NCBI GenBank assembly: GCA_016946835.1
Contig: JACVTC010000068.1
Location: 246,501 to 310,500 of the forward strand
From: Neocallimastix lanati (nom. inval.)
Lineage: Eukaryota; Neocallimastigomycota; Neocallimastigomycetes; Neocallimastigales; Neocallimastigaceae
Reading direction: 5' to 3'
Length of the DNA: 64,000 nt
The notes under the pieces were generated by a model. It was not told the origin of the DNA. It did no database searches and saw only the letters and a list, made by a program, of their open reading frames with translations. Made by a program: the position numbers and the translations under genes. Every line of letters starts with the position of its first letter. Position 1 is the stretch's first letter. Of this stretch, positions 5,513 through 62,305 are shown in pieces.

Positions 5513-6580
5513 CTAATGGTTGACGACATTAGCAATGAACTGGCTGTAGCTAAAATCTTGGTAGTCCTCCAGCAATTCTGCGTAGTGAGGATTGTTGTCG
5601 ATCACGTCGGCGTTAACCCACTCTTGTTTATCATTCTGGTGCGCAACCAGATACTGGTACTGTTCTTGGTGCTTCCTAGATCCAAGGATATGAATTATCT
5701 TTTGGCTTCCTCTGGGAGCTGGTACTAATTTCTTGGGAAGTTTGTAGTATGGTTCCAATTCGCTCACATGGAACACTGGATACATGTTTGGGAATGGCAA
5801 ACGACTAATATCCAGCTTGTAGTTCTTCTTTTCCTCGTAGACGCCAATTACCTTGAATGGTCCAAACTTCCTTGTGGCTAACTTATAGAACGTCAACGCA
5901 TCATAATTTTCTGGCTTTCTTAGCCATACCTTGTCGAGCAGCCTATACCTGGGGTACTTGTCCGTACGAGTCTTGTCCATATTATCCAGGTATCTAGTCT
6001 GTGCGATTTCCAATATGTGCTTAAGGTTTCCCAGGTTGTGAGCAAAGCTATCAATCATTTTAGCTTCTCCTAAAGAATTCACCAAGTCGGCTGTCTTTGG
6101 GGAGTTATGTACCTGGTAGTTATACAAGGTAAGGAAAGGAGATTGTTGGGTGGAAGCGTGGATTGAGTTGTTATAGCAGAACTCTGCTAAGAACAAGTAT
6201 TCCATCCAGCTCTCATCATCATAGGTTCCCACAAAGAACTGTAAATAAGTTTCTACGTAGGCATTGTTCTTTTCGACTTGGCTTATCGTTTCATGGTGAC
6301 TAGTGGTAGCATACTTTATTTCAATTCCGAAGAACTCCAGTAGCTCCTTCCATACTTGGCTTGTAAACTGAACCCCTCGGTCAGTCATAACCACCTTAGG
6401 GAATCCGTGCAACCTGTAAATTTCTCTTAGGAAAGCGTTAGCAGTCTCATTAGCATTGGGCACATGCTTAAATCCTATCAGGTGTATCATCTTGGTTAAT
6501 TTGTCACAGCACACTAAGATACAACCTGCTCTCTTTGTTTCCCAAATGTAACCATCTTCTGTTCTTGTCCTACATTTCAC
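5513..6580 (-). CDS. gypsy-1 integrase, catalytic core and C-terminal domain
   Basis: Uninterrupted stretch of 355 codons. It carries the core of a retroviral-type integrase: the region after the first catalytic Asp (CCDKLTKMIHLIGF), the second Asp in VMTDRGVQF, and an NN[A]YVE-like segment after SHHETISQVEKNN holding the likely catalytic Glu. The C-terminal SH3-like region contains KFGPFKVIGVYEEKKNYKLD and a FHVSELEPY block. Integrase joins the cDNA ends to host DNA in the nucleus. The first Asp (LDFITDLP) and the zinc finger lie just upstream in another frame, so the apparent start is not the true one. An unusual charged insert (CRTRTEDGYIWETKRAG) separates LDFITDLP from CCDKLTK. Confidence 0.85.
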   Translation of the reverse strand: MKCRTRTEDGYIWETKRAGCILVCCDKLTKMIHLIGFKHVPNANETANAFLREIYRLHGFPKVVMTDRGVQFTSQVWKELLEFFGIEIKYATTSHHETISQVEKNNAYVETYLQFFVGTYDDESWMEYLFLAEFCYNNSIHASTQQSPFLTLYNYQVHNSPKTADLVNSLGEAKMIDSFAHNLGNLKHILEIAQTRYLDNMDKTRTDKYPRYRLLDKVWLRKPENYDALTFYKLATRKFGPFKVIGVYEEKKNYKLDISRLPFPNMYPVFHVSELEPYYKLPKKLVPAPRGSQKIIHILGSRKHQEQYQYLVAHQNDKQEWVNADVIDNNPHYAELLEDYQDFSYSQFIANVVNH

Positions 6581-7284
6581 TGGCAGATCTGTTATAAAAT
6601 CTAATTGTACCTCTTGCCAGGGTAATTCTGCAACTGGAACTCTAACTGCAGTACCATATTCTTTGTGTCTATCATCCTTCTTGGTAGCACAGGATTTACA
6701 AGCTTTGACATAGCCTGAAATATCTTTCCTCGTCTTCGGCCTTCGGCCAGTAGAAGTTCCTAGATACTAGGTCCGAAGTCTTGTCAATTCCCAAGTGACC
6801 TGCGTACTCCGAGTCATGGTTCAATTGAATAATCGTTTTCTTTTCTAACCAGAAGGCCATCTACTTCTAGCCAATGCTTCTTGTTGTAGTTGTTTCTGGT
6901 ATCTTCTACTAAATCTTTAATTATCTCTTGGGCCATTTTATCCTGTCTGTAGGCCTGCTTAATATCGTCCATAAATTGGTAGCTAAGGCTAAATAACTAG
7001 CCTCTCCATCTACATCATCGAATCCTACCAATTGTTCGGGTTTTAATAGGCTATCTTTATCGAATTCTTTACCCTCAGTTTTCTCTGTTTCTACTCTTGA
7101 GAGGGCATCAGCTTTACCATTCTTTTTCCCAGGTCTGTATACTATTTCGAACCAGTATGTGGCGAATAGGTTCATGCCATCTAATTTGCATAGGAATTAG
7201 TAGCTGTGGTTTTGTAGAGAACAACAGATTTCTGTGGTCACTATAAACGATAATCTTATGCTTCGCACCTTGAAGCAAGTGTCG
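6581..7284 (-). pseudogene. gypsy-1 RNase H end, integrase zinc finger (frame-broken)
   Basis: At 6921-7175 the frame holds the RNase H tail TYWFEIVYRPGKKNGKADAL with SRVE, typical of gypsy pol. Between about 6600 and 6870, in shifted frames, come a GHLGIDKT patch, NFYWPKAEDE and CKSCATKK (the HHCC zinc-binding module) and WQEVQLDFITDLP with the first catalytic Asp. At least three frame changes occur, and the RNase H centre (7176-7284) is also out of frame. Confidence 0.75.
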
Positions 7285-8217
7285 CTATTCTGTAAACGCA
7301 GTCTTAATGGCTAATAATTCTTTCTCCGTAATCGAATAATTCACTTCAGCCTTGCTGAGTGTCTTTGAATAATAGTATATAGAATAAAGAGTACCATCGT
7401 CTCCTTTTTGTGATAACATACCTCCTATCGCGTAATTACTAGCATCACATTCAACGAAGAACTGTTTTTCATGGTCAGGGTAAGCTAGCACTGGCGGAGA
7501 GGTAAGCATCTCCTTCAACTTGTGAAACGCATCCAACCCTTCTTCATTCCATTCAAAATTCTCTTTCTTAGAAGTCATCTTAAATAGCGGCTTGGCTATT
7601 TCTGAAAAGTTTCTTATAAAATTTCGGTAGTAATTGCAAAAGCCTAGAAAGCTTTGCATCTGCTTAACATTTTCGGGTTGTGGCCATTCTGCCACAGCCT
7701 TTATCTTCTCTTGGTCAGTTTCTACACCATCTTTACTGACCACATGGCCTAAAAATGAAATCTTGAGCTTGTGCAATTCACACTTAGACATTTTTGTTAC
7801 AAGCTTATGCTTAATCAGTTTCTTTAGTATGGTTCGAACATGTTCCTCAAGTGTTTTTGAATACACTACAATGTCATCTAGGTAGACTTGACAGTACTTC
7901 CCGATGTCCTCGCTGAAGACATCATTCACGAAGCTTTGGAACACCGCTGGTGTATTGGTTAAACCAAAAGGCATCACCAAATGCTCGAAGTGTCCATACT
8001 TGGTGTTGAAGGCTGTCTTATATTCGTCACCTTCTCGAATTCGTACCAAGTTGTAGGTAGATTTAAGGTCGAACTTTGAGAACACTACTGCTCCTTTCAT
8101 AGCTTCGAAAACTGCACTAATTCTTGGGATAAGATAGGCATTACGTTTGGTCCATTGGTTCAATATACGATAATCCATGCAAAGTCGCAACTCGCCAGAC
8201 TTTTTGGGCACGAACAA
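7285..8217 (-). CDS. gypsy-1 reverse transcriptase and RNase H
   Basis: Reads from LRLCMDYRILNQWTKR through KFDLKSTYNLVRI, the MPFGLTNTPAVFQ block and the catalytic CQVYLDDIVVYS (YLDD), then the thumb/connection segment FLGHVVSKDGVE and SFLGFCNYYRNFI, into RNase H (FFVECDASNYAIGGMLSQ, then YYSKTLSKAEVNYSITEKEL). It copies the genomic RNA to DNA in the particle. The start is arbitrary: RT N-terminal residues and the protease-RT linker continue upstream in broken frames. TYNLV replaces the usual AYNLI/V, but the key carboxylates are kept. Confidence 0.92.
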   Translation of the reverse strand: MFVPKKSGELRLCMDYRILNQWTKRNAYLIPRISAVFEAMKGAVVFSKFDLKSTYNLVRIREGDEYKTAFNTKYGHFEHLVMPFGLTNTPAVFQSFVNDVFSEDIGKYCQVYLDDIVVYSKTLEEHVRTILKKLIKHKLVTKMSKCELHKLKISFLGHVVSKDGVETDQEKIKAVAEWPQPENVKQMQSFLGFCNYYRNFIRNFSEIAKPLFKMTSKKENFEWNEEGLDAFHKLKEMLTSPPVLAYPDHEKQFFVECDASNYAIGGMLSQKGDDGTLYSIYYYSKTLSKAEVNYSITEKELLAIKTAFTE

Positions 8218-8808
8218 TACAGGGTAACCTGCTGGAGATTCTGAACGTCTTATAAACCCTTTGGTTAAGTTTTCATCAATATATTATTATAGCGCTTTTT
8301 CTTCTCTAGGACTTGTTGGATATATAGCTCCTTTGTACAGTGGTGCGTCAGGCTCTGGCTCGATTTTGCAATCATCTGGTAGCGTTTCAGCGATTTCTTC
8401 ATTGAAGGCTTAGGTTAAGTCTCTATAATACTTGTCTATAATCTTGCCAATAGATAACAGCTTCTCTAGCTCCACTTTCTTAATTGTTTCAGCTACCGAA
8501 TCCTCTTGTATAATCATGGCTAAATTATCTTTTTCCTAGCTACACTTTGTGGCAACATTTTCCGTAGGGTTTTTATCTATTTTATTCTCTTTTAGATTTT
8601 TACTTTTCTGTGCCTTGAACCAATCCGCCCATTTGTCGTAATTTATTAAGTAATCATAATAGTCCGTAGTATATTCAATTCCTCTCTCACGGTAAAATTG
8701 CTTGTTAAATCGTATACCGTGTCCTTTAATCTTTAGTTATCTATAAACTGTTGTATTATCTTGGTATTTCTCGCTGTGGGTTGAATCTCCCTTTGTACAG
8801 CTGGTTCT
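8218..8808 (-). pseudogene. gypsy-1 protease-RT linker, degenerate
   Basis: Connects gag-protease and RT. Several in-frame stops. The N-terminal RT region around PSGLPGLSNP-like codons is interrupted, and an RT N-terminal signature (approximately ASPAG near 8225-8245, followed by YPVLF) is visible. No other domain recognised. Confidence 0.5.
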
Positions 8809-10041
8809 TTATCTTCTAAATTCCTGTACCATGTAGATACTTTCACCTTCACATTCTCCTAGTGAATCTACATCTGGTAACCCCGGCTTTTCGCCATCTA
8901 TCTTGTAAACTTTAGATTGCTTGTCATGGACGTCAATCTTTCTATAAATCAGGTGTCTATCCATGAACCTTGAACTCAGAATAATTGTCCTTGGCATAGC
9001 CTCAGCTAGCCTACATCTTGTGTTAAAGTCATACCATTTGACTTTACCAGTATGCTCCTCGACCAGCTTAATCTTGATCTTGAACTCTTCGGTAACCTGT
9101 GGTATCAACACTTTACCAGCGGCAGTAGTAAACGTTAAGGGACGGTTTTCTGTCTTGAGTCCTATCTCTTTAGCCAACTGCGGATGGATCATGTTGATCT
9201 GTGATCCGGTATCGTACAGCACGTTTAAATCTTGGAGCCCCTCTTTGGTACGAAGATTACTTATTTTGGCTTCTGGCACAAACTCTTCGTACTCAGACCC
9301 ATCTTGCATCAGGAGTACTGTCTTGGGAATCGGATTGTTACTACTGGTACGTGAGTCCTTAAAATAATTTTGTTTCTCGCTTGGTCTCGTACTGAAATCT
9401 TTACCATCGTTGTGGTTATAACCATCTTTCTTATTCTTATCGTAATTATTTTGTTTGGTAGGCTCCTTCCTACTATAATCTCTTTTATCTCCTCGGTGAT
9501 TGTCGCTGTTCCTCCTTCTCTTGGCTTCGATATCCTTGGAGGGTCTTCGCGGATCTATCATTCCTAGTAATGCCATGATGGCTATCTTCTTCTCGCGGTT
9601 ATATTCATATCTCTCTAGGTGGTCATCCTTGTAATCCGCGGGGAATGTATCACATCTCCTTAAACAAGTTACATAATCTTCTAAGGTTTGCTTTTCTGCA
9701 GGCAGGTCGTAAAAGGCCTCTCGAACCGAGGGTCTAACTTGTTGTACTAGCAGCAACCTTTTAGTTTCATCCGATAGCTGAAGAATTCTGCTTAGCCTGT
9801 TAAACTCGGAGAGGTATTCATAGGCTTTAACCCATTCATGCTTGAGTTTTAACATTGCAGTTTTCACCTCTTCTAAGGTTCTTTCGCTTTTGAATTCCTT
9901 TAGCAATCTGTCCATTAACCTTTGAGGTTGTGGGTCATCCCGTTGCTTGAACACTTCATCCATCTGGTACCACTTCTTAGCAGTTCCTTGCAAGTGGACC
10001 TCGATAAAGTACAACATAGCCGTGAGCTCGTATACTATCAC
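8809..10041 (-). CDS. gypsy-1 Gag fused to aspartic protease
   Basis: Uninterrupted 410 codons. The N-terminal half is a retrotransposon capsid-type Gag (LQGTAKKWYQ, LMDRLLKEFKSE, AYEYLSEFNRLSR, QVRPSVREAFYDL), followed by a basic, lysine/arginine-rich nucleocapsid-like region (KRRRNSDNHRGDKRDYSRK) without a CCHC knuckle. The protease follows with VLYDTGSQINMIH (catalytic D-T-G) and a flap/strand segment TAAGKVLIP. Gag packages the RNA; the protease matures the particle. The capsid N-terminus is missing: in-frame stops occur just upstream, and a PTNFPEAPEFE peptide in another frame near 10055-10075 may be its displaced start. Confidence 0.85.
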   Translation of the reverse strand: MIVYELTAMLYFIEVHLQGTAKKWYQMDEVFKQRDDPQPQRLMDRLLKEFKSERTLEEVKTAMLKLKHEWVKAYEYLSEFNRLSRILQLSDETKRLLLVQQVRPSVREAFYDLPAEKQTLEDYVTCLRRCDTFPADYKDDHLERYEYNREKKIAIMALLGMIDPRRPSKDIEAKRRRNSDNHRGDKRDYSRKEPTKQNNYDKNKKDGYNHNDGKDFSTRPSEKQNYFKDSRTSSNNPIPKTVLLMQDGSEYEEFVPEAKISNLRTKEGLQDLNVLYDTGSQINMIHPQLAKEIGLKTENRPLTFTTAAGKVLIPQVTEEFKIKIKLVEEHTGKVKWYDFNTRCRLAEAMPRTIILSSRFMDRHLIYRKIDVHDKQSKVYKIDGEKPGLPDVDSLGECEGESIYMVQEFRR

Positions 10042-10172
10042 TCAAACTCAGGGGCTTCTGGAAAATTGGTCGGAAATACTCATTTTTGTTAAAATATAGG
10101 AAGTGTTCTTCTAGACTCCGAAGTTATAAATTTTTATTATTAATATAAATAATTTATATTTAACAAATATAT

Positions 10173-10262
10173 ACATATTTTAAAGATATTTTAAAGATAT
10201 TTTAAAGATATTTTAAAGATATATCAAGATATATTAAAGATATATTAAAGATATTTAAAAGA
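10173..10262. repeat. tandem repeat, 11-bp unit
   Basis: About eight copies of attttaaagat and close variants (atatcaagat, atattaaagat), lying exactly between the oppositely oriented gypsy-1 and gypsy-2 remnants. Confidence 0.85.
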
Positions 10263-10296
10263 TCTATTATATTAAAAAAGTCTATTTAGTATTTTA

Positions 10297-10905
10297 ATGA
10301 ATTCAATCAGTGTGGAAGCTACTAAGGAAGCTGAAGCGTCAAAATTAATTTCTGCAATTACCGAATTTATTCCCACTTTTTTTTTCACCTAACGGTGTGT
10401 TGGACCGCAATGAAGACAACACAAAGCTTAATCTAAACGAACTAACGGAACAGTGTGAATTGTTCTTTGATGAACATGCCAATTCGTTCCCAAGTGACGA
10501 CTTTAGAAACGCTTTCGCTATCAGCTTATCAGCAAACTTTATGGACCAGCTAAAAAATGGGGATTATCTCTCAAGGCTGATGGAACACTTAATTCTTTCA
10601 CCTATGAGGAATTTAAGAGGTTATTGTTAGAAAATTTTGGAGATACAAAGTAACAAAGGTTTGTTTTAATTTAAGAACTTTTGAACCTTAAACAGCTTCA
10701 CCTCGGAAAGGCAGCTTTCTTTACTATTGAATTCAGAAGATTAGCGTCAAGAATTGGTTGGAACGACGATGTTTTTATTGACCTTATCCGGAGAGGCCTT
10801 CTTGAGGAGGTTCGTCTGGAGTTCGATAAAATCGAAAGACCAAAGACCCTTTTTTAAGAAACAAATTCAATCATCAGCATCGATAAAAAATGTTATATTA
10901 ACAAC
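10297..10905 (+). pseudogene. gypsy-2 gag, frame-broken
   Basis: The ATG at 10297 opens MNSISVEATKEAEASKLISA. After a frame change near 10385 the next frame carries NLNELTEQCELFFDEHANSF and DDFRNAFAISL. A further shift leads to LNSFTYEEFKRLLLENFGD, and another to FRRLASRIGWNDDVFIDLIRRGLL near 10725-10800. This is the usual course of a retrotransposon capsid. A lysine-rich segment (SQKRKRDEYPKQEFKNK) follows at about 10930-11000. At least three frame breaks. Confidence 0.7.
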
Positions 10906-11094
10906 CTAGCAAAAACAAATAAGTCAACCAACAAGTCGCAAAAAAGAAAAAGAGATGAGTATCCAAAACAGGAATTCAAGAACAAAGTACACAAGAAATT
11001 CAGAAAAAATCAAAACAAAGAAAGCATCCTTTCGGATAACTATACACCAAACACCTCAAATTCAATGACCACTACATTAATATTAAATAATAAT

Positions 11095-11570
11095 GGAAAA
11101 AAAATGAAAATAAACATCTTATTGATTCTGGTTCTGTAAGAAGTTACATCTGTAGAGACTTTGTAAACGCCAACAGAATTCAAATATCTACCTTGTCTTC
11201 ACCATTGAACATTCAGTTACCGAACAACAAAAGTATGAATATAAGACAAGTAATGAAGAAATTAGACCTTGCCTTCATGGACCACAAGGAAAGCTATGAA
11301 TTCTACGTAGCTACCTTACAACTTCAGGGAATATCAGCCATCCTTGGAAGAGATTGGTTGAGTATTCATATGCCATACGTAGATTTCAAAAATAACAAGA
11401 TTTACTTTTTAGAGAACCACTGCGGAAATCACTGCCCTTCAGCAAAAGGGAATAAATTCATTTTTCACTCTAAAGATGTTACTGCTGCAATTTTGCCAAA
11501 CAACGAAAACAACAATGTATCAAAAGTTAAAACAGAAACATACTCAATATCTGGTGACGAACTTTTTTGA
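11095..11570 (+). pseudogene. gypsy-2 aspartic protease
   Basis: Contains LIDSGSVRSYICRDF (D-S-G active site, around 11115-11165, in a frame that shifts at its start), the strand SSPLNIQLPNN, and the conserved AILGRDWLS at about 11337-11360 typical of gypsy proteases. The frame 11193-11570 runs uninterrupted through most of the domain and overlaps the start of the next (RT) frame by about 95 nt. Confidence 0.75.
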
Positions 11571-12508
11571 TATAGATATTTGCGCCGCTTTAGTAAATGG
11601 AACTGATAAAGATGAAATTATCAACATATACTATCAAGATTTGAAAATTGTATTTGAAAAGAAAGAGGCAGACAAATTGCCTCCACATCGTGAATATGAT
11701 ATATCAATTGACCTAGTCCCTGGTGGTCAATTATATTATGGACCCGTGTACTCTCTTACCATAGTCGAAATGGAAGCTCTTAAAAACTATATAAAAGAAA
11801 ATTTAGATAAGGGGTTTATAAGGAAGTCAAAATCACCTGTTGGTGCCCCTGTCCTGTTTGTAAAAAAACAAGATGAAAGCTTACGACTCTGCGTTGACTA
11901 TATGAAATTAAATTCTATTACAATTAGGAATAGCTACACTATTCCAAGATTGGTTGACTTGATTGAATCTTTTAAGGGGGCAGTAATATTCACTCGTTTG
12001 GACCTTCGATCTGCGTATAACCTTGTCCGCGTTAAAGAAGGTCATGAATATTTAACTGCTTTTAGAACACCTTTAGGCCAATTTGAATACCTAGTAATGC
12101 CCTTTGGCCTAAGAAATGCCCCCCTCGGTGTTTCAAAGATTCATCCAGGATGTTTTATCTAATGCAATTGGCATATTTGTTCAAGTATACTTGGATGATA
12201 TAATAATTTATTCAAAAAGTTTGGACGAACATATTCAACATGTTCATAAAATATTGTCGCTTCTAATTAAAAATGGCCTTTACGTGAAATTGGAAAAATG
12301 TGATTTTCATGTTAAAGAAACTATTTTTTTAGGGTTTGTGGTGTCTATAAATGGTCTTTCAATGGACAGGAATAAGGTTAAAGCTGTTATAGACTGGCCT
12401 ATCCCAAAAAATATTAAAGAACTCCAAGGGTTTCTAGGACTTTCTAACTTCTATAGGAAGTTTATAAATAATTTGCCGAGATCATTGAACCTCTCCGTCG
12501 GCTTTTGA
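11476..12508 (+). pseudogene. gypsy-2 reverse transcriptase, one frame break
   Basis: The first frame (to about 12120) carries PPHREYDISIDL, VGAPVLFVKKQDESLRLCVDY, TRLDLRSAYNLVRV and VMPFGLRNAP. A frame break at about 12118-12125, in a C-run, leads to SVFQRFIQDVLSN, the catalytic VQVYLDDIIIYSKS (YLDD) and FLGLSNFYRKFI. All RT motifs are present, so a single indel separates it from an intact RT. The shift at 12490-12508 into the RNase H frame is another break. Confidence 0.9.
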
Positions 12509-13621
12509 AGAAGAACTCTTCCTTCATTTGGGATGTTAGGGCAGACAATGCTTTCAACAAACTCAAAGAAGCTTTTACGACGGAAGAAATCCTAGTTTAT
12601 CCAGATCCAGAGAAAGAATTCTTTGTAGAAACGGACACTAGCAATTTCGCTGTTGGTTGTGTTTTATCTCAAATTAGTAACAAAGACAATAAACTCCATC
12701 CGGTTGCTTTCTACTCTAGGTCCTTGTCTTCTGCTGAAATCAATTATACCATTTATGACAAGGAATTACTTGCAATAATCGTAGCTTTTGAAACCTGGCG
12801 CAATCACCCAGAAGGTGCTAAATTTCCAGTACAAGTAGTCACAGACCACAGAAATCTGTTATATTTTAAGCAACCCCAAAAATTAAACCAAAGACAAATT
12901 AGATGGAGTTTCTTTCTCTCAAAGTTCACTTATAGGATTTCATTTAGCTCCGGTATTAAGAGTGGTAAACCTGACTCTTTATCAAGACGCCCTGATTACG
13001 TCAACAAGGATTCGACCAATGAAGGTTATCCTCTGTTAGATGAAGAGATATTTTGTTGTGCACCTTCTGACAACTTAAAAGCCTTAATTGAAGCTCAGAA
13101 GTCTGACACATACTGTAAGGATACACTCAATAAAATTAAAACAAGATCAATTGAAGTAAAAAGTTCCCTTTTTACCATCGTCGAAGGGGTTCTGCATTTT
13201 CAGAACCGAATAATTGTCCCTTCTTCACTCAAGTCCAAGGTATTGAAAATGTATCATGATGGTCCAACTAATGGTCACCAAGGAGTAGATAAAACTTTTG
13301 AAAAATTAAAAAGAAATTATTGGTGGCCAAATATGAAAAAAGATATCAAGAATTACATATCCTCATGCGATGTTTGTGGAAGAAATAAGCTCCGAAAACA
13401 CAAACCATATGGTAAAATACAACCTTTACCGGTTCCCAGTAGACCTTGGGAAATAATTGGCGTTGACTTTATCACTTCACTTCCCAGCTCGCAAGATTGT
13501 ACATGTTTAATGGTTGTAGCTGACCATCTGACCAAAATGATTCACCTTGTCCCTTGTTCTGATGTTTCCTCCGCTGATCTGACGGCCAAAATGCTTCTAT
13601 TCAATGTTTTATATTCGGTAC
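12505..13621 (+). CDS. gypsy-2 RNase H and N-terminal half of integrase
   Basis: RNase H: FFVETDTSNFAVGCVLSQ, FYSRSLSSAEINYTIYDKEL and VVTDHRNLLYF, ending KSGKPDSLSRRPDY. Integrase zinc finger: HDGPTNGHQGVDKT, then SCDVCGRNK (HHCC). The core begins IIGVDFITSLP (first Asp) and VVADHLTKMIHLVP, and ends at LFNVLYSVH just before the expected G-L-P. The remaining residues to a stop at 13656 come from unrelated DNA, so the catalytic core is cut before the second Asp and would be inactive. Confidence 0.9.
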
Positions 13622-13742
13622 ATCTATATACCTTTGATTTATTCTTTTTAGTGTAGGAATAATTATATTTATATTTTTTATTAATAATTATTTGTTCTTT
13701 TCCTCTATTAGTTTCACTAATAACTATTTTTAGCTCTTCCAT
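13622..13742 (-). pseudogene. N-terminal part of a FLYWCH zinc-finger protein (MULE-associated)
   Basis: From the ATG at 13740-13742: MEELKIVISETNRGKEQIII then NKKYKYNYSYTKKNKSKVYRC. The order 'RGK.. hydrophobic strand, Y.Y, lysine-rich turn, VYRC' is that of a FLYWCH zinc finger up to its first zinc cysteine; the rest of the finger is missing because the gypsy-2 integrase begins at about 13621. In fungi FLYWCH fingers often accompany MULE transposases. The repeated GCGAAATGAAAC-type motifs 110-170 bp upstream resemble MULE ends (compare 22161-22608). Short, so moderate confidence. Confidence 0.45.
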
Positions 13743-18575: not shown

Positions 18576-19470
18576 ATGACTGAAGAATTAATTAAGAACC
18601 AAAATAAACTAACGCAATTCCAATGCATTCAAGTCCTTTCAGATACAAATAAGGATGTTGATGCTTGGTATAATCAAATGAAGGCTTGGATCACTCTTTA
18701 CCAAATTACTGATGAAAAAGAAATTTTTAATAATTGCAAATTTAAAGTGATTGGTAAAAGTATCCATTGTCTTTGCATTAGTAACTAAAGATGTGAATAA
18801 TAGCATTGTTTATCCATCTTTAGAAGAAATACATGATGCTCTTCTAGAATTTCATGACTTATATGGATCCAGAAGATATTATTGACAAACTTAAAATATG
18901 ACAATATCTACTAGAGGAAATATAAAGGAATTTAATAAAGAATATAAAGAATTATATAATAAACTCGATGAAGATGATCGTAGATGCATTTCTGTTTCTG
19001 ATTATTTGAAGTCAATTTTTAACAAGAAAGAAGCGTGGAAAGGGGTTAAACTGGCGGGAAAAAGAATTAGTCTAGCAAAAGCTTTTTCTACAGCTGAATT
19101 AATTGATGAAATTGAAAATGAATGTGGAAAAAGAACTAGTAACTCTAATGGAAATTCTTCTTTTAACCAAAAATTTAACTTGCATAATATCAAAAATTTT
19201 AATAATAAATCAGTCACTCATGAATCAGGTGATAATAATTTCAAAAATAATAATTTGAATAATGATTGAAATAAAGGTAAATAAAGAGTACAAATGTGCT
19301 ATTTTTGTAACGAAGAAGGTCATAAGAAATACAATTGTCCATGTAGATGTATTCTACTAAATAATAATAATAATAATTATAATAATAATAATAATAATAA
19401 TAACAATAATTATAATAATAATAATAATAATAATAATAACATAAATTTAATTATTGGACCTATAGAATGA
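18576..19470 (+). pseudogene. gypsy-type gag, frame-broken
   Basis: Two frames, 18576-18788 and 18898-19269, are colinear with the gypsy-C Gag at 49239: VDAWYNQMKAWITLYQITDE corresponds to the ELWKFRINDWFKREGITTDE region, and IKEFNKEYKELYNKLDEDDR to VYEFNTRYLELYDLLKTEDR. A CCHC zinc knuckle, CYFCNEEGHKKYNC, follows at about 19298-19340, then an (AAT)n-rich asparagine tract (19362-19440). Gag would package the element's RNA. Stops separate the frames. Confidence 0.7.
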
Positions 19471-19689
19471 ATTTACCAAATTTATCAAAAAGCAATAATT
19501 TAAAAATTTTAAATAAAAATAATTAAATTAAAAATAATTATAATGAAAGAACATCATTAAATAATAAAAATAATAATTTTATCAATCATAATTTAAATTT
19601 AAATATTTTAAAAAGAAAAGAAAATCCAGTATTTTTTATAAAATTTAAAAAATATCGTAGAACAGATTTTAACAACAAAATTATTGCTT

Positions 19690-20268
19690 AAATTCAAAAC
19701 ATGGTCCCAAGCAATTATATTCAAGCAATCAATTGCAAAGACCATTTATTATGGGAACAAGCCATGGATGATGAATTGCGCAACTTTTATGATAATAATG
19801 ATATTTGTTAAACATGTCCCAAAAGGCAAAAGAATTTTACCTTTAATTTGGATATGCACAAATAAAATTAATAGTGCTGGTGTTGTTATTAAACACTAAG
19901 CACGTATTGTTGCACAAGGATTCCGACAATTATTTTGTGTGGACTTCTTTCAGACCTCTGCCCCTACTCTAAATATCGATGATCTAAAATTGATGATTGC
20001 CATTGCTTCAAAATTCAAATGGCATATTTTCCAACTTGATGTTAAAGCTGCCTACCTTAATGCTAAAATTGACACAGAAATTTATACAACTATTCCGCCT
20101 GGAGATGCTAACTTTGGGAAGGGATACTGGAAACTTAGAAAGGCACTTTACGGATTAAAACAGTCAGGACGCCAATGGTATCTGACAATATCTGAATTTT
20201 TAATAGAACAATTATTCAATTTCTCAATTATTCAATTTCTCAAAAACATTTTATTAACATCATTTTAA
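19690..20268 (+). pseudogene. copia reverse transcriptase, N-terminal part
   Basis: Around 19700-19790, in shifted frames, SNYIQAINCKDHLLWEQAMD and DELRNFYDNN form the start of a copia RT. From 19939 the frame carries APTLNIDDLKLMIAIASKF, IFQLDVKAAYLNA, YTTIPPGDANFGKGYW and ALYGLKQSGRQWY. The segment with the catalytic YVDD is absent: after the frame ends at 20268 the sequence resumes in the connection domain at 20289. An internal deletion therefore removed the active site. Confidence 0.85.
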
Positions 20269-20288
20269 ATAAATTCAATATTAATAAT

Positions 20289-21011
20289 ATGAAAAAAGTT
20301 ACAACTCCATGCGTTGGAGATAATATTATTTCTGAGAATAATGATCCATATGATAAAACAACATATAAAAGCGCTATTGGTATGCTAATATTCTTATCCA
20401 AAGCAACCAGATCGGATATCTCTTTTGCCGTACACAAAGCCGCCAGAAATTCGGAAAATCCTACAATGACCGATTGGAGAAAAGTAAAAAACATCTTGAA
20501 ATATTTAAACAGCACTATAGATTACAAGATAACTTATGATGGTCAAGGAAACATAGTTGCTTATACTGATTCGAATTTTGCTGGAGACATTAAAGACAGA
20601 AAATCGAATTCTGGACATATTATTCTTTTAGGAAATAATCCAATCTCTTGGATGTCTAAAAAACAGACTATAATTGCTACCTCAACCGCTGAAGCAGAAT
20701 ATATTAATGCTTCACAATGCATCAAGAAATTATTATGGATCAAGAATATTCCTTTTGAATTAATAGGATTTAATAAACCAATAACTATTTTTATTGATAA
20801 TAATGCATGTAAAATTTCTATGGAAAATGGTGATTTAAATCCTAAATTAAAATATATATCAATTAAATATCACTTTAATGTAGACAACATTAAGAAGAAA
20901 ATAGTTGAATTAAAACACATTGAAAGCTCTGAAAACTTAGCAGATATTTTAACAAAAATCACTAATGGAGACAAAATTAAATCCTTCGCAAATATAATTT
21001 TTAATAACTAA
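20289..21011 (+). CDS. copia connection and RNase H domain
   Basis: A 240-codon frame: YKSAIGMLIFLSKATRSDIS, the AYTDSNFAGDIKDRKSNSGH segment with RNase H acidic residues, ISWMSKKQTIIATSTAEAEY, then FIDNNACKISMENG and ILTKI near the end. It matches the C-terminal third of copia pol (compare copia-5 at 61300-62047). A purine-rich tract (ttgagggggag, 21021-21031) follows at once and leads into the presumed 3' LTR. It joins a gypsy-type 5' half, so the whole 18.0-21.3 kb unit is a mosaic. Confidence 0.85.
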   Translation: MKKVTTPCVGDNIISENNDPYDKTTYKSAIGMLIFLSKATRSDISFAVHKAARNSENPTMTDWRKVKNILKYLNSTIDYKITYDGQGNIVAYTDSNFAGDIKDRKSNSGHIILLGNNPISWMSKKQTIIATSTAEAEYINASQCIKKLLWIKNIPFELIGFNKPITIFIDNNACKISMENGDLNPKLKYISIKYHFNVDNIKKKIVELKHIESSENLADILTKITNGDKIKSFANIIFNN

Positions 21012-22160: not shown

Positions 22161-22608
22161 GGGAGTGGTGTATTTTGGCCATTTTTTTTGAAAGCATGTA
22201 GCGTATTATTAAAAATGTTTCATTTCGCCAAATTGAAAATTATTAAATAAATAAATCAATAAATAAAAAATTAAATATTATTAATGTATTTATAATTTTA
22301 AAGTAAATTCTTAAATATTAAAAAAATTTACAAAATATTAAAATATATCTTTATAATTAAATATATTTTTATAATTTAATAAAATAAATAATTATTTATT
22401 GCTATTTTACAAAATATTAAAAAGTATCTTTAATTAATTATTAAATATAATAAAAACAAGTTTAAAAAAAATTATTTTGAAATTTTATTTATTTATTCAT
22501 TCATTTATTCATATCAACAGCCACTTGTCGAAATGCAACCTGGGGAATTGAAACTTAGAGAAATGCAACATTATAATAATACGCCACTTGGCGAAATGAA
22601 ACTCTCCC
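22161..22608. mobile_element. MULE-type MITE with 9-bp target duplication
   Basis: Flanked by direct copies of AAATTTAAT at 22152-22160 and 22609-22617; 9 bp is characteristic of Mutator-like elements. Ends GGGAGTGG... and ...CTCTCCC. Both ends carry GTTTCATTTCGCCAA (22217-22231; inverted copy 22588-22602) and GCGTATTATT (22201-22210; inverted copy 22575-22584), with further degenerate 'gaaatgcaac' units at 22529-22570. No ORF, so it is non-autonomous. Confidence 0.75.
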
Positions 22609-22617
22609 AAATTTAAT

Positions 22618-22819
22618 AAACACTAAAATAAAGAATTTTTCTTTTGTTTAATTTTTATTTATTAAAATACACTTCATAAATATAACTTCCCTTCGTTATA
22701 TTTACAAAACTAGATATTACAAATTTTATAAAACTTTATTAATTTTATTTAAAAATTACAAGATTAAAAACTTATTAATACATTTATTTAATAAAAATAA
22801 AAAAAAATAAAACTAATTT
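22618..22819. other. AT-rich spacer downstream of rep
   Basis: Non-coding stretch between the MITE and the rep stop codon. No recognisable feature. Confidence 0.5.
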
Positions 22820-24292
22820 TTATAATGTTGAACTATTATCAGGTTCCTTTCCTTTATTATTTCTTTTTTTAATAATTGTATTTAAATTATTCAATCTATA
22901 TTTATTTTTTAAAATTTGTTTTAAATAATCAAAAGTAGGATATTTATCCCTTAAATCCTTTATTGTTGGATCGTTTTGATCTTCGTAATTGGTATTTTCA
23001 TACCATTCTTCAAAGTAGTTTTGTTGTTCTTCTTCAGTAAAAGAGGCCTTTATTAAGAGTTCCTCTTTTTCATCTTCATTGATTTCTTCTTCTTCTGGTT
23101 GAACTGGACTGGTAGCTGATTCTTCGGATTCCGGTTCTTCAGTTGCATTGTTGTTGAATTCAAGAACGTTGGATTGAATTTCTTCGATTTGTGATTCAGA
23201 GAAGCACTCCTGAATAATTTTCTGTTTTTTATTTAACTCATAATTATCAAATTGAATTTTTCTTTTATTGAATGTTTGGATAAAATTATTAAAAATTTTT
23301 TGTTTTTATATATTTTATTGTATCGTAATATAGCGCTAATCTATCTAAATTTGGCCTGTTTATATCATCGTGTATTGAATTAAGGTGTATTGAATAAAGT
23401 CTCCTGTTAATTGGTTCATAATCCTCAAATTAATTGCCCATCTTTATTTGTAAAAAGCTGTTTTAAGTTGTAATTAGATGTTAGAATCCAAAAACGAGGT
23501 CTAATCTTTTCAATATTAGCACCCTTTACTTCACCTGGAAAAACATATTGGTCAGACCAGGTCTTTAAATTCGAAGCAGCTAATTGACACCAATTCTTCG
23601 ATAACTACAATTTCTTGACCCATGTAGTCATCCCACCACTTATTGCGAGATTTTTTATAAACTCTTAAAGATTTATGTTCTCTATCTCTGAGTTTACAGT
23701 AAAGTTTCCAAAATTCGTTTAAAACATAAACAATCTCGTATATTCTGAAACTTTTTTCTGTACCAGTTTTTCCGTGTATAAATAAATTAAATTCTTTGAA
23801 GAAATCACCTTTTTCGTTAGTTAAATAGAGATTATCAGTTTCCAAATTTTCCACATATAGTTTTTAATTATATTATCATATTTCAACATTTTTTCAAGAT
23901 CAATATCAGAAAATCTACCTTTCTTTGCTAATTCCACAGCTTGACGATAAGTTTTGTTTATCATTCCTTAGATTTTCTCTAATAAACTCAGATAGAAACT
24001 GCCATATATCACCACATTTTTTACAATAGTTTAAATTAGCTTCATATACCTTTTTACATGGTTCAATATGAAGTTCTTCAATGTTCAGTAAATTTTTAAT
24101 AGTAGTCGGCCTGCATTTTTTTCTTAAACAAAGGCATCCCTGAAGATGTGGAGTTCCTGTTGTAGGAGCTTTTTCGTGACCGTAAAATAGATGCATGACA
24201 TTCGAATTTTCCATAGCATAATTTTGAATGATTCTTTCTTGTTCATCAGAGTAGTTAGAAAGAGTGAAAGCGAAATAACGAGAAGCGGCCAT
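22820..24292 (-). pseudogene. rep: CRESS-DNA-virus-type replication initiator (Rep), endogenous, frame-broken
   Basis: Rep nicks the viral origin with a HUH endonuclease and unwinds DNA with a superfamily-3 helicase. From the ATG at 24290-24292 the endonuclease domain shows motif I FTLSNY (residues 9-14), motif II HLQG (49-52) and motif III YCKK (89-92, catalytic Tyr). After frame breaks near 23945 and 23860 come Walker A GKTGTEKS (about 23773-23750; the third Gly of the usual motif is Glu), Walker B VVIEEL (about 23608-23591) and motif C ILTSNY (about 23488-23471). A PINRRLYSIHL block follows a third break near 23430. A fourth break near 23300 leads to a long, strongly acidic C-terminal extension ending at 22820. 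The total of about 490 codons is long for a Rep (usually about 300). No capsid gene is recognised. Endogenised Rep genes are known in many eukaryotes. Confidence 0.88.
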
Positions 24293-24496
24293 TTTTTTTT
24301 TGTTTAATAATAAGATTTTATTTATCTTTTAGTTATTTAAAAAAATAAAGATGTGAGTTAAAAATTAAAGATTTTTTTGATCCTTTTATAAAAAAAATAA
24401 CTATTTTTTATAATAAGTAGAGTTGATAAATAGTTCAAAAAGTTTTTACACAAATTAAATTGACAATATATTACAGTATATTCAAATGAATTGATT
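24293..24496. promoter_or_regulatory. rep upstream region
   Basis: About 200 bp of AT-rich sequence between the rep start codon and the origin hairpin, where a Rep promoter would be expected. The only motif seen is a TATTAC at 24469-24474. Confidence 0.4.
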
Positions 24497-24536
24497 CAAA
24501 CTGTTTCCGATACCCTAGTATTACGGAAATAGTTTG
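24497..24536 (-). promoter_or_regulatory. CRESS-DNA-virus replication origin hairpin with nonanucleotide TAGTATTAC
   Basis: The left arm CAAACTGTTTCCG (24497-24509) pairs with the right arm CGGAAATAGTTTG (24524-24536): 13 bp with a single G-T wobble. The 14-nt loop presents CCCTAGTATTA, and the nonanucleotide TAGTATTAC occupies 24516-24524. This is the canonical geometry of circovirus-like origins, in which Rep cuts between the T and A of TAGTATT/AC. The spacing of about 200 bp from the rep start and the divergent side are as in CRESS-DNA viruses. The stem is intact although rep is broken. Confidence 0.9.
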
Positions 24537-24591
24537 ACCCTGCACTATTTCTTTGAAAACACGAAGTCAAAAAATAGAGACATGCAAGGTA

Positions 24592-24610
24592 TTGGTCGAC
24601 ACCAGACCAA
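24592..24610. repeat. short inverted repeat near origin, possible Rep-binding iteron
   Basis: TTGGTC at 24592-24597 and GACCAA at 24605-24610 with a 7-nt loop, 56 bp beyond the origin hairpin. CRESS Rep proteins often bind short repeats close to the origin; that role is inferred only from position. Confidence 0.35.
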
Positions 24611-25050
24611 AGTATAAAGTAATATATGTACAACAAGCATTCCTTCATATATGCGTACATATAATAATATATATTACACGATATATTCCAATGTATTACC
24701 GTATATATTAAACATATATAAACCACGATTAAGTATATATTCTGTATATCCCGTAAATCAACATTATATTGTTCTGAGTCAATATTAATACATGAAACAT
24801 TTAATATAACACCAAATTTAATATAATGACACACCTTTGTGATTAAAACATTTAATATTACACTAAAAATTCTCATATTACACAAATTATAGATCAGTAT
24901 ATGTGTCTAGACTCCTTCCAAATAACTTCTTTTTTTTATTAAAAAAAAATTCTTCCTAAAAAATTTTTTTAAATCTTTTTTTTCTTTTTAAATCTTTATT
25001 TTTTTTCTTTTTATATACAATAATTTTTTTATTATTTCAATATTAGTATT
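24611..25050. other. non-coding sequence beyond the origin
   Basis: Several TATTAC words (24672, 24694, 24856, 24876) but no capsid-like ORF on the plus strand, where a divergent cap gene would start. A minus-strand open frame of 129 codons here overlaps the origin hairpin and has no recognisable domain; I treat it as chance. Confidence 0.5.
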
Positions 25051-25664
25051 TGTAATCAATCTGTCAATAAAAACAGATTATAATAATAAAAAACACTACA
25101 CAATTTAAACAAATAAAAATAAGTAAATTCTTTTATTAATAGATTCTTGTATTAATTATAACTTTCTTTTATGTTATTAACTGTAAAATAGTTAATAACT
25201 AATACATCGATTTAATTGAGAAAAATTACATGTATTTATATTTTTTTATTACATTATTAATATATGATGTTATTTAATATATATAAAGCTATTTATTTAT
25301 AAACAAAAGATTTTTAATAATTTTATTATTTATTAATTTACTAAAACTAAAATTAATTTATTAAATTATTTATTTTATTTATTATTTTAATACTTCTAAT
25401 AATTTTAATTATATATTTAATATTGAAAAACTATTTTTATTAATATTAACTATTTATGATTATTCATAAATTAATATTTAACTATTTAAAATTAAACTAG
25501 GCAAACTAAACTAATTAATTAAATTAAAAAAATATTTTCAATTTAAAAAAATAATTAAATTTTATTTCAATAAATATTATATTTAAAAAAAATATACATT
25601 AAATAAATTAATTATACGAAAAATTAAACTATTTAATGTATTAAAGATTTGTTAAATCTTTACA
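25051..25664 (-). mobile_element. solo LTR, family F (copy 1)
   Basis: Plus-strand ends TGTAATCAATC... and ...AAATCTTTACA, flanked by GTATT at 25046-25050 and 25665-25669. It resembles the 38999-39760 copy, including TTACATGTATTTATA and the TAGTTAATAACTAATACATC block. It inserted between the origin and the right inverted-repeat arm of the Rep segment. Confidence 0.8.
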
Positions 25665-34814: not shown

Positions 34815-35564
34815 TTAAATACTAAAAATCTTATTTGCAAATATACTCATTTTTGTGCCATTAATATCTTTAGTGAGAGCGTCAGCTAACATTTCTTTTG
34901 TATCTTTGTATTCCAATTTTACTTTCCTTTTTACTATGTTATCTCTATTAAAATGAAATATAATATCTATGTATTTTAACTTTATACTGATTTCACCATT
35001 TTCAATAGTTATTTTACTTGCTAAATTATCTGTGAAAATGGTAATTGTTTTATTATAATTTATTAAATCTTTTAAAATATTTCTGATCCATAGAATCTTT
35101 TTAATATTTTCGGATGTGCTAATGAATTCTGCTTCTGCTGTAGACGTAGCTACACATGTTTGTTTTTTAGAAATCCAGCATATTGGACTGTTTCCCATAA
35201 GTATTATTCCACCAGACGTAGATTTCCTGTCATTTAGATCACCTCCAAAATCGGCATCAGTGTATGATATTATTTTCCCTTGTATATCACATTCAATTTT
35301 ATAATCTTTTGTACTATATATATATCTGAATATATTTGGTATTTTATTCCAGTCTGATATTGTGGGTTTTTCTGATTTTCTGGCAGCTTTGTTCACGGAA
35401 AATGCGATATCTGGCCTTGTACATTTTGATAAATATATTAAGGAACCTATTGCACTCTTGTTGATTGTTTTATTGAAAGGTTTATTATTTTCAGAGATAG
35501 TGTTATCTCCTGTGCATGGTGTTTTTCTTTTACTCATTTCTTTTATATTAAATATGTCTAACAT
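34815..35564 (-). CDS. copia-D connection and RNase H domain
   Basis: A 249-codon frame: YLSKCTRPDIAFSVNKAARK, SYTDADFGGDLNDRKSTSGG, ICWISKKQTCVATSTAEAEF, FTDNLASKITIENGE and LADALTKDINGTKMS. RNase H removes the RNA strand of the cDNA hybrid. A stop at 35565 separates it from the RT; the linking residues are readable in a shifted frame (35565-35660). Confidence 0.9.
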   Translation of the reverse strand: MLDIFNIKEMSKRKTPCTGDNTISENNKPFNKTINKSAIGSLIYLSKCTRPDIAFSVNKAARKSEKPTISDWNKIPNIFRYIYSTKDYKIECDIQGKIISYTDADFGGDLNDRKSTSGGIILMGNSPICWISKKQTCVATSTAEAEFISTSENIKKILWIRNILKDLINYNKTITIFTDNLASKITIENGEISIKLKYIDIIFHFNRDNIVKRKVKLEYKDTKEMLADALTKDINGTKMSIFANKIFSI

Positions 35565-36231
35565 TTTATTTATAATACTATTTTGCGATATAATATATTT
35601 ATTCTTTTGTTTTTAAATTTTTATACCAAGTATGAATTCAGCTGGTCCACAATTTAATATTTTAAATTTGTTCTTTAATTTTTGTAATAATATTTTGTAT
35701 TTCTTTGTCTTCACCAGTTATGATCATATCGTCTACATATAAACCTATGATGCATTTGGTTTTATTATTCTTTGAATATTTAAATATACACTTTTCAGAT
35801 TTTATTTGTTTAAATCCATTTTTATTTAAAAATTTTGTGATCGTTTGGTTCCATCGCCTACCGGATTGTTTTAATCCGTATACTGCTTTATTGAGTTTCC
35901 AGAATCCCCGTCCAAAGTTAGTATCTCCTAATGGAATAGTAGTATATATATCAGTATCTAAAGGAGCGTTGAAATACGCAGCTTTAATATCTAATTGGAA
36001 GATATTCCAATTAAACTTACCTGCTAAAACGATAATAAGCTTTAATCCATTAATATTTAAGGTAGGAGAATAAGCGAGTTCATAATTAATACCTCTACGT
36101 TGTTTAAAACCTCTAACAACTAGGCGAGCTTTAAATCTAACAATAATATAATTAGAATCTTTTTTGATAGCAAAAACCAATTTTGTAGAAATAAGATTTT
36201 TGTTTTTAGGAATGTAATTAACAATGGACAT
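35565..36231 (-). CDS. copia-D reverse transcriptase
   Basis: Frame 35662-36231 carries FKARLVVRGFKQRRGINYEL, the YSPTLNINGLKLIIVLAGKF segment, IFQLDIKAAYFNAPLDTDIY, YGLKQSGRRW and the catalytic LYVDDMIITGED (YVDD). All core RT motifs are intact. The upstream part (SYKEAINCPNKNNWYKAIQD) is in another frame near 36240-36320, and the frame ends in KEQI before the connection domain. Confidence 0.9.
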
Positions 36232-37200
36232 AACATTATTATTGTATAAATTATTAAGTTAATCTTGTATGGCTTTATACCAGTTATTTTTATTAGGACA
36301 ATTAATAGCTTCTTTATAACTATTAGGTGTATCAGAATAAATTGTAAAAACCATTTTTTCATTATTGGAAACATCATATATTTAGGTCGAGAGACATCAT
36401 TAGTAACATTAGAGAAAGTTTCAGGACTTAAAGGACGTTTGAGTAGGGACTGATTGTTAATTCCTGTCATATCATCAGCCATATTTACATCTTGGTCAGA
36501 AATGATGGGAATAATATTATTAATAATGTAATTAGTATCAGAACCTAAATCATGGTTAATAGAATAATAACCCTGGGAAGTTTTGCCGCCATTAGGGATA
36601 TAAACATTTTCATATAAATTTGAATAATTAGAATTGTTATTTGATAGATTATTATCTACGACATTACCTTGTATATTTTCATTAGTAGCAATAATATTAT
36701 TATTATAATTATCATCTTTAATATTTTTGGTGACAGAATCTTCATTATTTAAAGATTTATTATGAGAAAGTTTAAATGTTTTATCAAAAGTATCATTTGT
36801 TACTGATGTATTGATTTTATTTTTATCATTAATTATATTTTTATTATTGACATTTTGAAAAAAAATTTTATTTATAAATTTTTGATTAATTTTTGAAAAA
36901 TTTTTAAGTTTCATTGATTTATTACTATTATCATTAATTTTATGTAACTTATTATCTTTATCAATAAATGTTGTAGATTCACGTGATGTATTAAAAGATT
37001 TTAATTTAGTGGAATTATTATTCATAATATTATTATTCTTCGTCATTATTGGGTCTGAATTTAAATTATGAGATTTAATAATTTTACCATTATCCAATGG
37101 TTGTAAATTAAATTTTTCTTCATTTTTTGAATAATTTTTATTATTAAATTTTTTTTTCATTTTTAAATTTTGAAATATCAATATTTTCTTTAAATGTTTT
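36232..37200 (-). pseudogene. copia-D asparagine-rich linker between integrase and RT
   Basis: Open over most of its length (to 37181) but low-complexity: runs of N, K and S, with short ordered parts such as YIPNGGKTSQGYYSINHDLG and DVNMADDMTGINNQSLLKRP. Copia pol normally has a poorly conserved linker here. A frame change near 36360 separates it from the RT start. The linker continues beyond the solo LTR at 38026. Confidence 0.7.
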
Positions 37201-39765: not shown

Positions 39766-40938
39766 GGTGTATTCTTTTGTTTTTTATGTCCATAATCCTA
39801 TATGAGTAATTTTTCTTGCTGAAACCAAGAAATATTCCTTCCTTTGCTTTTGGAGTGAAATTGGATTTGTTTTCCATATTATCAATATAATAACATATAT
39901 ATATCCAAAAGTTCTTAAGTGTTTTAAAGAAATACTTTTTCCTGATATGACTTCATCAGGTATTAAATTATTATTTCCTTCATGAGAAATCTTATTATAC
40001 TAATAAGCCGCATGTCTGACTGCATATTCCCAGAAATTTTCAGATAATTTTGCCCAAAATAATAAAGTTTTAGCTGTGTTTTTTATTGTTTGATTTATCC
40101 TTTCGGTTTTTCCATTATTTTCTGGACGATATAGTGGAGAGAATGATTTTCCAATTCCATTATCTTTACAGTATCTTCTTATTTTCTTATTTTTATATTC
40201 TTTACCACCATCAGATTTAAATATTTTAACTTTATGGTTTTCATATTGATTGTTAAGATATTTGAGAAAATCAATTATAATGTCTGGCGCTTCAGCTTTA
40301 GATTTTAATGTGAATAGCCATACTTTCCATGAATATTCGTCTAAGAAAGTTATAAAATATTTTTTATCATTAATAGAACTGTTATATGGCCCCGAAATGT
40401 CAGAGTGTATAACTTCAAGTATCTTGTTTGATTTAGGATTGTTCCCATTATGTGGGGAATGCTTCATTTTTACTACTTTACATTCTTTACATTTTGGGAT
40501 CTTGATCTCGTGTAATTCTAAATGTTTAGAAATATTTCTTATATATTGATGGCCCATTCTTCTATACCATATTTCTAGACTGTTTTGTCCTAAATCATCT
40601 AATAATAAAATATTTTGATTATTTATTGTACTTTTTGTGTTTATTTTAAATTGATTGAAATCATTTGATAGAAACGTTCCAATAACATTTTTATCACATT
40701 CAGATATAGTCAATTTTACTTTTTTTTGACTTAATGGCTCAATAACGAATGTTATACCTATTTTTGCGAATTCGATGGCACTTATCAAGTTTTTATGTAT
40801 CTTTTTTGAATATAACACTTTGTTTAATTTTATATGGTAGTTGTTTATGGTAAATTCACAACTACCATATCCTTCAAAGTCTAAAGTAGTATTGTCTGCA
40901 CATCTTAGTTGTACAAAATCTTCTTTATAATCTTTCAA
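39766..40938 (-). pseudogene. copia-D integrase
   Basis: The uninterrupted frame 40000-40938 begins after the protease site and contains the C-terminal protease strands (LDFEGYGSCEF), the HHCC finger (MGHQYIRN.., then CKECKVVKMKHSPHN), and the core with IHSDISG (first Asp), FKSDGGKEYKNK (second Asp) and RPENNGKTERINQT (Glu). It ends FWEYAVRHAAY at a stop; the rest of the integrase (NLIPDEVISGKSISLKHLR.., a TFGY region) is readable in broken frames to 39766. The protease active site YYDSGAYE lies just upstream behind a TGA. Confidence 0.88.
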
Positions 40939-42077: not shown

Positions 42078-42238
42078 TCCATATCACCTAGCTGCAGTCA
42101 TGATAAGGAAATACCTTGTGGAAAAATTGGATGCACCACGAAGATGTTGGTCCTTAGCTAAGTTAAACTGATAGGCCATCTTAATACTTTGTTAAAATCG
42201 ATTTTTAAATTTAAAGCTTTGTTATTATTATAGAGGAT
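42078..42238. other. copia-D leader
   Basis: Untranslated region between the primer site and the gag start codon (minus strand); no feature seen. Confidence 0.5.
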
Positions 42239-43149: not shown

Positions 43150-43385
43150 ACGACTCTATGTAAGGTATTATTGTATTATTTGGTTATATAATTTAGTTTT
43201 ACAAAAGACTTTACTTTGAAATCACTAAATTAATTTCAAAATTTAAATATTGAAATTTACATTATAAAATTAAAAATTAAAAATTTTGATTAAAATTTAA
43301 ACAAAGGATTTAAAATTTTAAAACAATTAAAATTAATAAATTATTAATCAAAATTTAAATTTTATAAATTAAATAAACATAAAAC

Positions 43386-55084: not shown

Positions 55085-55119
55085 TGATATAAAACAAATA
55101 TGTGTAGCAACATATTTGT
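55085..55119 (+). mobile_element. gypsy-C 3' LTR, first 35 nt only
   Basis: TGATATAAAACAAATATGTG and on to ACATATTTGT; the hairpin ACAAATATGT/ACATATTTGT (55094-55119) is complete, and the LTR is lost exactly at its last base. Copia-E coding sequence follows. Confidence 0.75.
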
Positions 55120-57305: not shown

Positions 57306-57311
<6 letters not shown>

Positions 57312-57531: not shown

Positions 57532-57533
57532 TA

Positions 57534-62302: not shown

Positions 62303-62305
62303 TTA

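What the first reader, a model, noticed from the sequence alone, without database searches (positions are those of the whole stretch)
22820..24536. Integrated CRESS-DNA-virus replication module: Rep gene plus canonical origin hairpin
Seen: HUH endonuclease motifs I-III, SF3 helicase Walker A/B and motif C in order on one strand, and about 200 bp from the start codon a 13-bp stem with a 14-nt loop presenting TAGTATTAC. Known: this is the replication module of CRESS-DNA viruses (circovirus-like, phylum Cressdnaviricota) and related plasmids. Inference: an AT-rich, probably fungal genome has captured a CRESS replicon with its origin, not just a rep cDNA. An intact origin beside a decayed rep would let a related Rep in trans recognise it.
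Basis: partly seen in the sequence, partly recalled or inferred. Interest (0 to 1): 0.92.

Follow-up and report, generated by a model that had tools for sequence, protein, structure and literature searches.

The report
Fossil circular-DNA replicon in gut fungus
A broken copy of a tiny circular-DNA virus or plasmid, with its copying gene and the hairpin where copying starts, sits inside the chromosome of an anaerobic gut fungus, and shorter relics of its kind lie at other places in the same genome.

Summary
The minus strand of 24328-22820 carries a CRESS-type Rep broken by at least five frame changes: an HUH piece (PF02407), an SF3 helicase piece (PF00910) and an acidic C-terminal piece. About 200 bp upstream lies a 14-bp stem with a 14-nt loop; its TAGTATTAC is the only one on either strand of the 64 kb. 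The host is Neocallimastix lanati, an anaerobic gut fungus.

Added here: (1) The insert is about 2.19 kb and sits in a dispersed AT-rich host repeat whose other copies lack it, so it is a real integration, not an assembly chimera. (2) Five other loci hold decayed or partial pieces of the same replicon family; three include origin sequence, and one breaks 3 nt from the expected nick site. (3) The C24 origin differs by one compensatory stem change, and two Rep C-terminal pieces are still open, which suggests separate insertions of related replicons.

No capsid gene was seen, so virus versus capsid-less replicon stays open. Use of this origin by a Rep in trans is untested. Integrated CRESS elements are known from protists, animals, plants and other fungi: a new member of a known kind.

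The parts
22730..24926 (.). Integrated replicon, about 2.19 kb; left break within 22730-22737 (AAAACTTT shared by host repeat and replicon), right break within about 24920-24927
   Evidence: host repeat copies without it; locus C5 homology to 22730; GC 26.5% against 17.2% and 16.8% in 2-kb flanks
22820..24292 (-). Broken rep gene, ATG to last stop, at least five frame changes
   Evidence: (open pieces)
23915..24328 (-). HUH endonuclease piece of Rep (stop-to-stop; ATG at 24292)
   Evidence: PF02407 7e-7; PDB Rep chains; fold
23552..23863 (-). SF3 helicase piece of Rep with Walker A (departing from consensus) and Walker B
   Evidence: PF00910 4e-6; PDB Rep chains over 24 residues
23425..23604 (-). 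Piece with a motif-C-like stretch
   Evidence: by eye; no database support
22820..23305 (-). Acidic C-terminal piece, 161 open codons
   Evidence: open relative at locus C5, 43% over 157 columns, 5e-35
24496..24537 (+). Origin hairpin, 14-bp stem with one G.T, 14-nt loop
24516..24524 (+). Nonanucleotide TAGTATTAC, opposite strand to rep
24526..24827 (+). Non-coding origin side, shared with locus C434 (88%) and in part with C24 and C721
22754..22783 (-). Thirty nucleotides after the Rep stop, identical at locus C5
22610..22737 (.). Host repeat, left of the insert
24920..25056 (.). Host repeat, right of the insert

Best explanation
An endogenous, decayed CRESS replicon. A small circular Rep-encoding DNA that multiplied by rolling circle in an ancestor of Neocallimastix lanati was opened in its intergenic DNA and joined into one copy of a dispersed host repeat, carrying rep, the origin hairpin and non-coding DNA on both sides. 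Rep then decayed by frameshifts; the locus cannot now make a continuous Rep. Relatives of the replicon inserted at other places. Shown: Rep pieces, hairpin, empty sites, further loci. Inferred from the family: while free, Rep nicked the plus strand at TAGTATT/AC in the loop and unwound the circle with its SF3 helicase, and breaks made by Rep or by the host were joined into the chromosome.
For: Family and PDB hits; model of the HUH piece with circovirus Rep domains as its 13 best PDB matches; unique stem-loop; flanks adjoining in other copies of the host repeat, 31 of 31 loci by my 80-nt criterion, 12 of them aligned; window within a 997-kb contig; HUH piece and helicase piece also on 30 and 34 other contigs, longest 21,674 bases; homologous loci C24, C434, C721, C5 and one more; higher GC than the flanks, as a paper describes for integrated CRESS elements (PMC7493932, passages read).
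Against: No capsid gene and no free circular relative seen. No Rep tree. PF02407 on the whole genome finds only the window copy and PF00910 finds none, not even the window piece, so the profile searches are weak here and copy numbers rest on DNA and single-sequence searches. Break points are blurred by AT-rich sequence. Read support across the borders was not available.
Confidence: 0.95

Rival explanations
1. A capsid-less circular replicon (fungal CRESS plasmid or satellite-like molecule) rather than a virus; the 2.19-kb insert is nearly all of it. A sub-reading of the best explanation.
For: The insert holds rep and about 0.7 kb without a recognised gene; no capsid-like gene was recognised by eye at the other loci read. 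Gigaspora circovirus A is described as Rep-only (PMC9501391, passages read). The presence of a capsid ORF is used to separate CRESS viruses from satellites and replicons (PMC6186406, passages read).
Against: An insertion that left the capsid gene out looks the same. Capsids are diverse, and I did not search the genome with capsid models. No locus shows sequence joining the two ends of the insert.
Confidence: 0.3
2. A transposon that uses a CRESS-type Rep, like the geminivirus-like transposon of Tuber.
For: Several loci in one genome; a break 3 nt from the nick position at C434.
Against: The loci hold different segments with different ends; few and diverged copies; no inverted-repeat pair with both arms at the insert edges among the 25 of 212 pairs shown. 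The Tuber element has 37-bp terminal inverted repeats (PMC3198968, passages read).
Confidence: 0.05
3. Assembly chimera with a free virus or replicon.
For: None found; reads were not available.
Against: Decayed rep; empty sites in many copies of the same host repeat; other decayed loci on other contigs; the same pieces on other contigs up to 21,674 bases.
Confidence: 0.02

Closest known systems
CRESS elements integrated in Entamoeba and Giardia (Naryaviridae, Nenyaviridae, Vilyaviridae relatives; the last two family names recalled)
   Same: CRESS Rep and untranslated DNA integrated in a gut microbial eukaryote; raised GC (PMC7493932, passages read)
   Different: Some of those keep both Rep and Cap and have free viral relatives; here no Cap and no free relative was seen
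Rep relics and geminivirus-like transposon in fungi
   Same: Rep genes of ssDNA viruses in fungal genomes (PMC3198968, passages read)
   Different: Those fungal Reps are geminivirus-like, and no origin was mentioned in the passages seen; this one is circovirus-like and keeps its hairpin
Gigaspora circovirus A; gemycircularvirus in Pecoramyces
   Same: Circovirus-like Rep without capsid in a fungus; ssDNA virus reads in another gut fungus (PMC9501391, passages read)
   Different: Found in transcriptomes, no integration site; not compared by sequence here
Circoviridae (circovirus and cyclovirus)
   Same: HUH piece closest to circovirus Rep in the PDB by sequence and fold; TAGTATTAC stem-loop
   Different: Identity near 26-29%; acidic Rep tail; no capsid seen; nonanucleotide on the strand opposite to Rep

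Membership tests
CRESS replicon (Cressdnaviricota-type Rep) | HUH endonuclease domain | tested here: met
   PF02407 over cut-off; fold
CRESS replicon (Cressdnaviricota-type Rep) | SF3 helicase domain after it on the same strand | tested here: met
   PF00910 over cut-off; broken, in pieces
CRESS replicon (Cressdnaviricota-type Rep) | NANTATTAC at the apex of a stem-loop | tested here: met
   feature as given in PMC6186406
CRESS replicon (Cressdnaviricota-type Rep) | Circular free form | not testable with these tools
   no scan of metagenome contigs was allowed; viral contigs gave no relative
CRESS DNA virus | Capsid-encoding ORF | tested here: inconclusive
   no family hit for the ORF on the origin side; insert may be partial; genome not searched with capsid models
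Circoviridae | Rep groups with circovirus or cyclovirus in a tree | not tested
   no full-length relatives retrieved; nearest PDB chains are circovirus Rep
Circoviridae, genus Circovirus | Nonanucleotide on the Rep-encoding strand (recalled) | tested here: not met
   plus strand, Rep on minus
Endogenous viral element | Embedded in host DNA with an identifiable empty site | tested here: met
Endogenous viral element | Decay of the coding sequence | tested here: met
   frame changes; stops at C24

The most novel reading that the evidence does not exclude
Anaerobic gut fungi host, or hosted, their own lineage of capsid-less, Rep-only circular replicons of about 2.2 kb, with a long acidic Rep tail, a conserved element after the Rep stop and a nonanucleotide on the strand opposite to Rep. 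These entered the chromosomes repeatedly, at times through an end nicked by Rep at the origin.
Probability: 0.25. Interest if true: 0.7.

Novelty: new member of a known kind. Interest (0 to 1): 0.5.

Why it matters
The hosts of many CRESS DNA elements found in gut and rumen samples are unknown (general knowledge). An integration with a clear empty site ties one circovirus-like Rep lineage to an anaerobic gut fungus. The preserved origin and several break points give material for asking how Rep-encoding circles enter eukaryotic chromosomes, and the relics could be used to assign rumen CRESS circles to fungal hosts.

Tried and rejected
No relatives for a tree: viral-contig scans with the HUH piece (2 stretches matched a pattern, none confirmed), the helicase piece (9, none confirmed) and a degenerate Rep pattern (0), and the HUH piece against 'phages' (no match). 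Protein search with the HUH piece gave 2 proteins of 4 candidates: the window's own and a 59%-identical 99-aa fragment lacking part of motif II. The helicase piece gave only itself. The C-terminal piece gave one protein of 168 candidates, that of C5. The length limit of that tool hides full-length Reps.

PF00910 on the whole genome found nothing, not even the window piece, and PF02407 only the window copy: these profile searches are insensitive here.

The left side of C24 at first looked capsid-like to me; by eye it reads as Ty1/copia reverse transcriptase and RNase H. A 20-30-nt target duplication suggested by the overlaps was dropped when C5 showed that most of the left copy is replicon DNA; a short duplication or a microhomology joint remains possible. 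The 136-aa minus-strand ORF 24906-24496 has no Pfam match and its frame is interrupted in C434 (by eye), so I do not call it a gene. The stretch 25057-25662 is a high-copy host element (40 full-length copies scored, the window's own included, of 3281 candidates).

Rows dropped as AT-rich noise: 23 of 27 (kept: the window, two rows of C5, one further locus; of the nine loci put to tblastn, seven had no Rep match or, in one, only 22% identity at E 0.002); the 42 of 45 rows other than the window, C434 and C24; most low-identity rows. My note says 30 of 31; the output shows 31 of 31.

Full report
What is there. The minus strand of 24328-22820 carries the remains of a CRESS-type replication initiator. 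The HUH piece (24328-23915) passes the Pfam cut-off for Viral_Rep and the helicase piece (23863-23552) that for PF00910. Both find Rep chains in the PDB. A model of the HUH piece of modest confidence (mean pLDDT 62.3; 62 of 125 residues at 70-90, 49 under 50; made from two sequences) has circovirus Rep domains as its 13 best PDB matches, then smacovirus, nanovirus and vientovirus Rep. In the viral library the named rows among the 50 shown are Rep-type proteins. Between the pieces the frame changes at least five times and neighbouring open pieces overlap, so frameshifts explain it better than introns. Walker A departs from the usual P-loop. Motif C and an arginine-finger-like stretch are recognised by eye only (no support). 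The last piece, 161 codons and acidic, has no Pfam match above cut-off, but locus C5 holds an open relative (43% over 157 columns, 5e-35), so it belongs to the unit.

The origin. A 14-bp stem (arms 24496-24509 and 24524-24537, one G.T pair) closes a 14-nt loop, z = -6.15 against 200 shuffles. TAGTATTAC at 24516-24524 is the only occurrence on both strands of 64 kb; of 36 NANTATTAC sites it alone has a strong stem (15.8 against 7.5 for the next), and 0 of 300 simulated 1.2-kb sequences reach that score. The motif is on the plus strand, opposite to Rep. The copy at C24 keeps 12 pairs, one changed on both sides (C-G to G-C) and two changed on one side. Selection on a stem would give this, but it is one pair in two sequences. 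In C24 and C721 the ninth base of the motif differs, and C434 lacks the motif. The block just 3' of the nonanucleotide is well conserved at all four origin loci.

The host. The window is G000:C643:246501-310500, in 199 Mb of 762 contigs. The search for fungal dockerin domains gave 150 matches, the number scored out of 1440 candidates, and rang in 0 of 14 control genomes. A protein identical to the C5 fragment over 151 of 151 residues is named by NCBI as Neocallimastix lanati on a contig of 680,654 bases, which is the length of C5. The lineage is Neocallimastigomycota.

The integration. Sequence left of about 22737 and right of about 24920 belongs to one dispersed AT-rich repeat, whose other copies carry the two parts side by side. 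Of 31 loci examined (29 of the 30, the other being the place of L020, plus L019 and L020), 31 pair the flanks within 80 nt by my criterion. L019 and L043 are one place, so these are 30 places, and at least one pairing (L065) is weak and elsewhere in its locus. An alignment of 12 of them shows the site. The same repeat copy is interrupted again at about 22161-22609 and about 25057-25662, the second time by a high-copy element. The replicon part is thus about 22730/22737 to 24920/24927: 83-90 bp after the Rep stop, rep, the hairpin region and about 0.4 kb beyond. The left edge rests on locus C5, which after its own stop shares 30 of 30 nt (22754-22783) and then a less exact stretch to 22730 with the window. 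Host and replicon share AAAACTTT there, so a microhomology joint or a short duplication is likely. GC is 26.5% in the insert against 17.2% and 16.8% in the 2-kb flanks.

Other copies. C24 has origin plus the N-terminal half of rep, 617 of 911 columns identical, with stops. C434 has only the origin side, 24526-24827, 88%. C721 has a short origin piece, 87% over 69 nt. C5 has the C-terminal piece, open. A sixth place has a decayed C-terminal fragment and was not followed. C434 begins 3 nt from the expected nick position. With about seven break points over 2.2 kb, the chance that one falls within 4 nt of the nick is near 3% (my estimate), so an end made by Rep is suggested, not shown. C434 is also flanked by a 14-of-15 direct repeat (L015 positions 3139 and 3437), one copy of which overlaps replicon homology, so it is ambiguous. 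Different segments, different flanks and divergent but open C-terminal pieces point to several insertions of related replicons (inference).

Distribution. Clusters (90% identity) of the HUH and helicase pieces are on 30 and 34 contigs, the longest 21,674 bases and so not this 997-kb contig; their sources are not shown. The broken pieces therefore recur outside this assembly, and the longest contig is far too long for a free circle of this kind. Full-length Reps could not be seen by that search because of its length limit, so intact relatives are neither shown nor excluded.

Known and new. Nearest reports: whole CRESS genomes integrated in Entamoeba and Giardia (PMC7493932, passages read); Rep relics and a geminivirus-like transposon in fungi (PMC3198968, passages read); Rep-only Gigaspora circovirus A and a gemycircularvirus in Pecoramyces (PMC9501391, passages read; review PMC10224137, passages read). 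An endogenous DNA virus of the chytrid Batrachochytrium is recalled; it was not among the 20 of 313 papers listed. Searches for this phylum or for early fungi with endogenous CRESS or viral elements held no paper; one search listed three papers unrelated by title, four including the review just named, three, two of them read here in passages (PMC7493932, PMC6186406). The library holds open-licence papers only. I therefore call this a new member of a known kind. Proof of a capsid-less replicon lineage in gut fungi would lift it. That this origin could be used by another Rep is untested.

Noticed in passing
window 5513-13656 and 49230-54257: Ty3-type retroelement genes: reverse transcriptase, RNase H and integrase zinc-binding domains in ORFs 8283-7285(-), 12472-13656(+) and 51781-53643(+).
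   Followed up: partly
window 18895-21011, 34815-37199, 40000-42083, 43383-47720, 55064-63998: Ty1/copia-type genes: RVT_2 in 46431-47720 and 60287-61774, integrase core in 40986-40000(-); the ORFs 20196-21011 and 35612-34815(-) had no Pfam hit at 1e-5 and are called copia by eye. The insert lies in a retroelement-rich region.
   Followed up: partly
window about 22161-22609: Second insertion in the same host repeat copy; inverted arms 22217-22245 and 22574-22602 and an 8-nt overlap of the flanks in L019 suggest a small inverted-repeat element with target duplication.
   Followed up: no
window 22754-22783 and L081 about 4175-4205: Thirty nucleotides after the Rep stop are identical between the window and C5 while the DNA around is about 73% identical: perhaps a functional element of the replicon.
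   Followed up: no
L081 3836-4166 (C5): The open Rep C-terminal fragment at C5 is part of a 167-aa NCBI gene model, hypothetical protein H8356DRAFT_1431762; whether it is expressed or kept is unknown.
   Followed up: no
L016 3013-3106 and 3530-3623 (C721): The short origin piece at C721 lies between two direct repeats of 94 nt (77% identical, 517 nt apart), of unknown nature.
   Followed up: no
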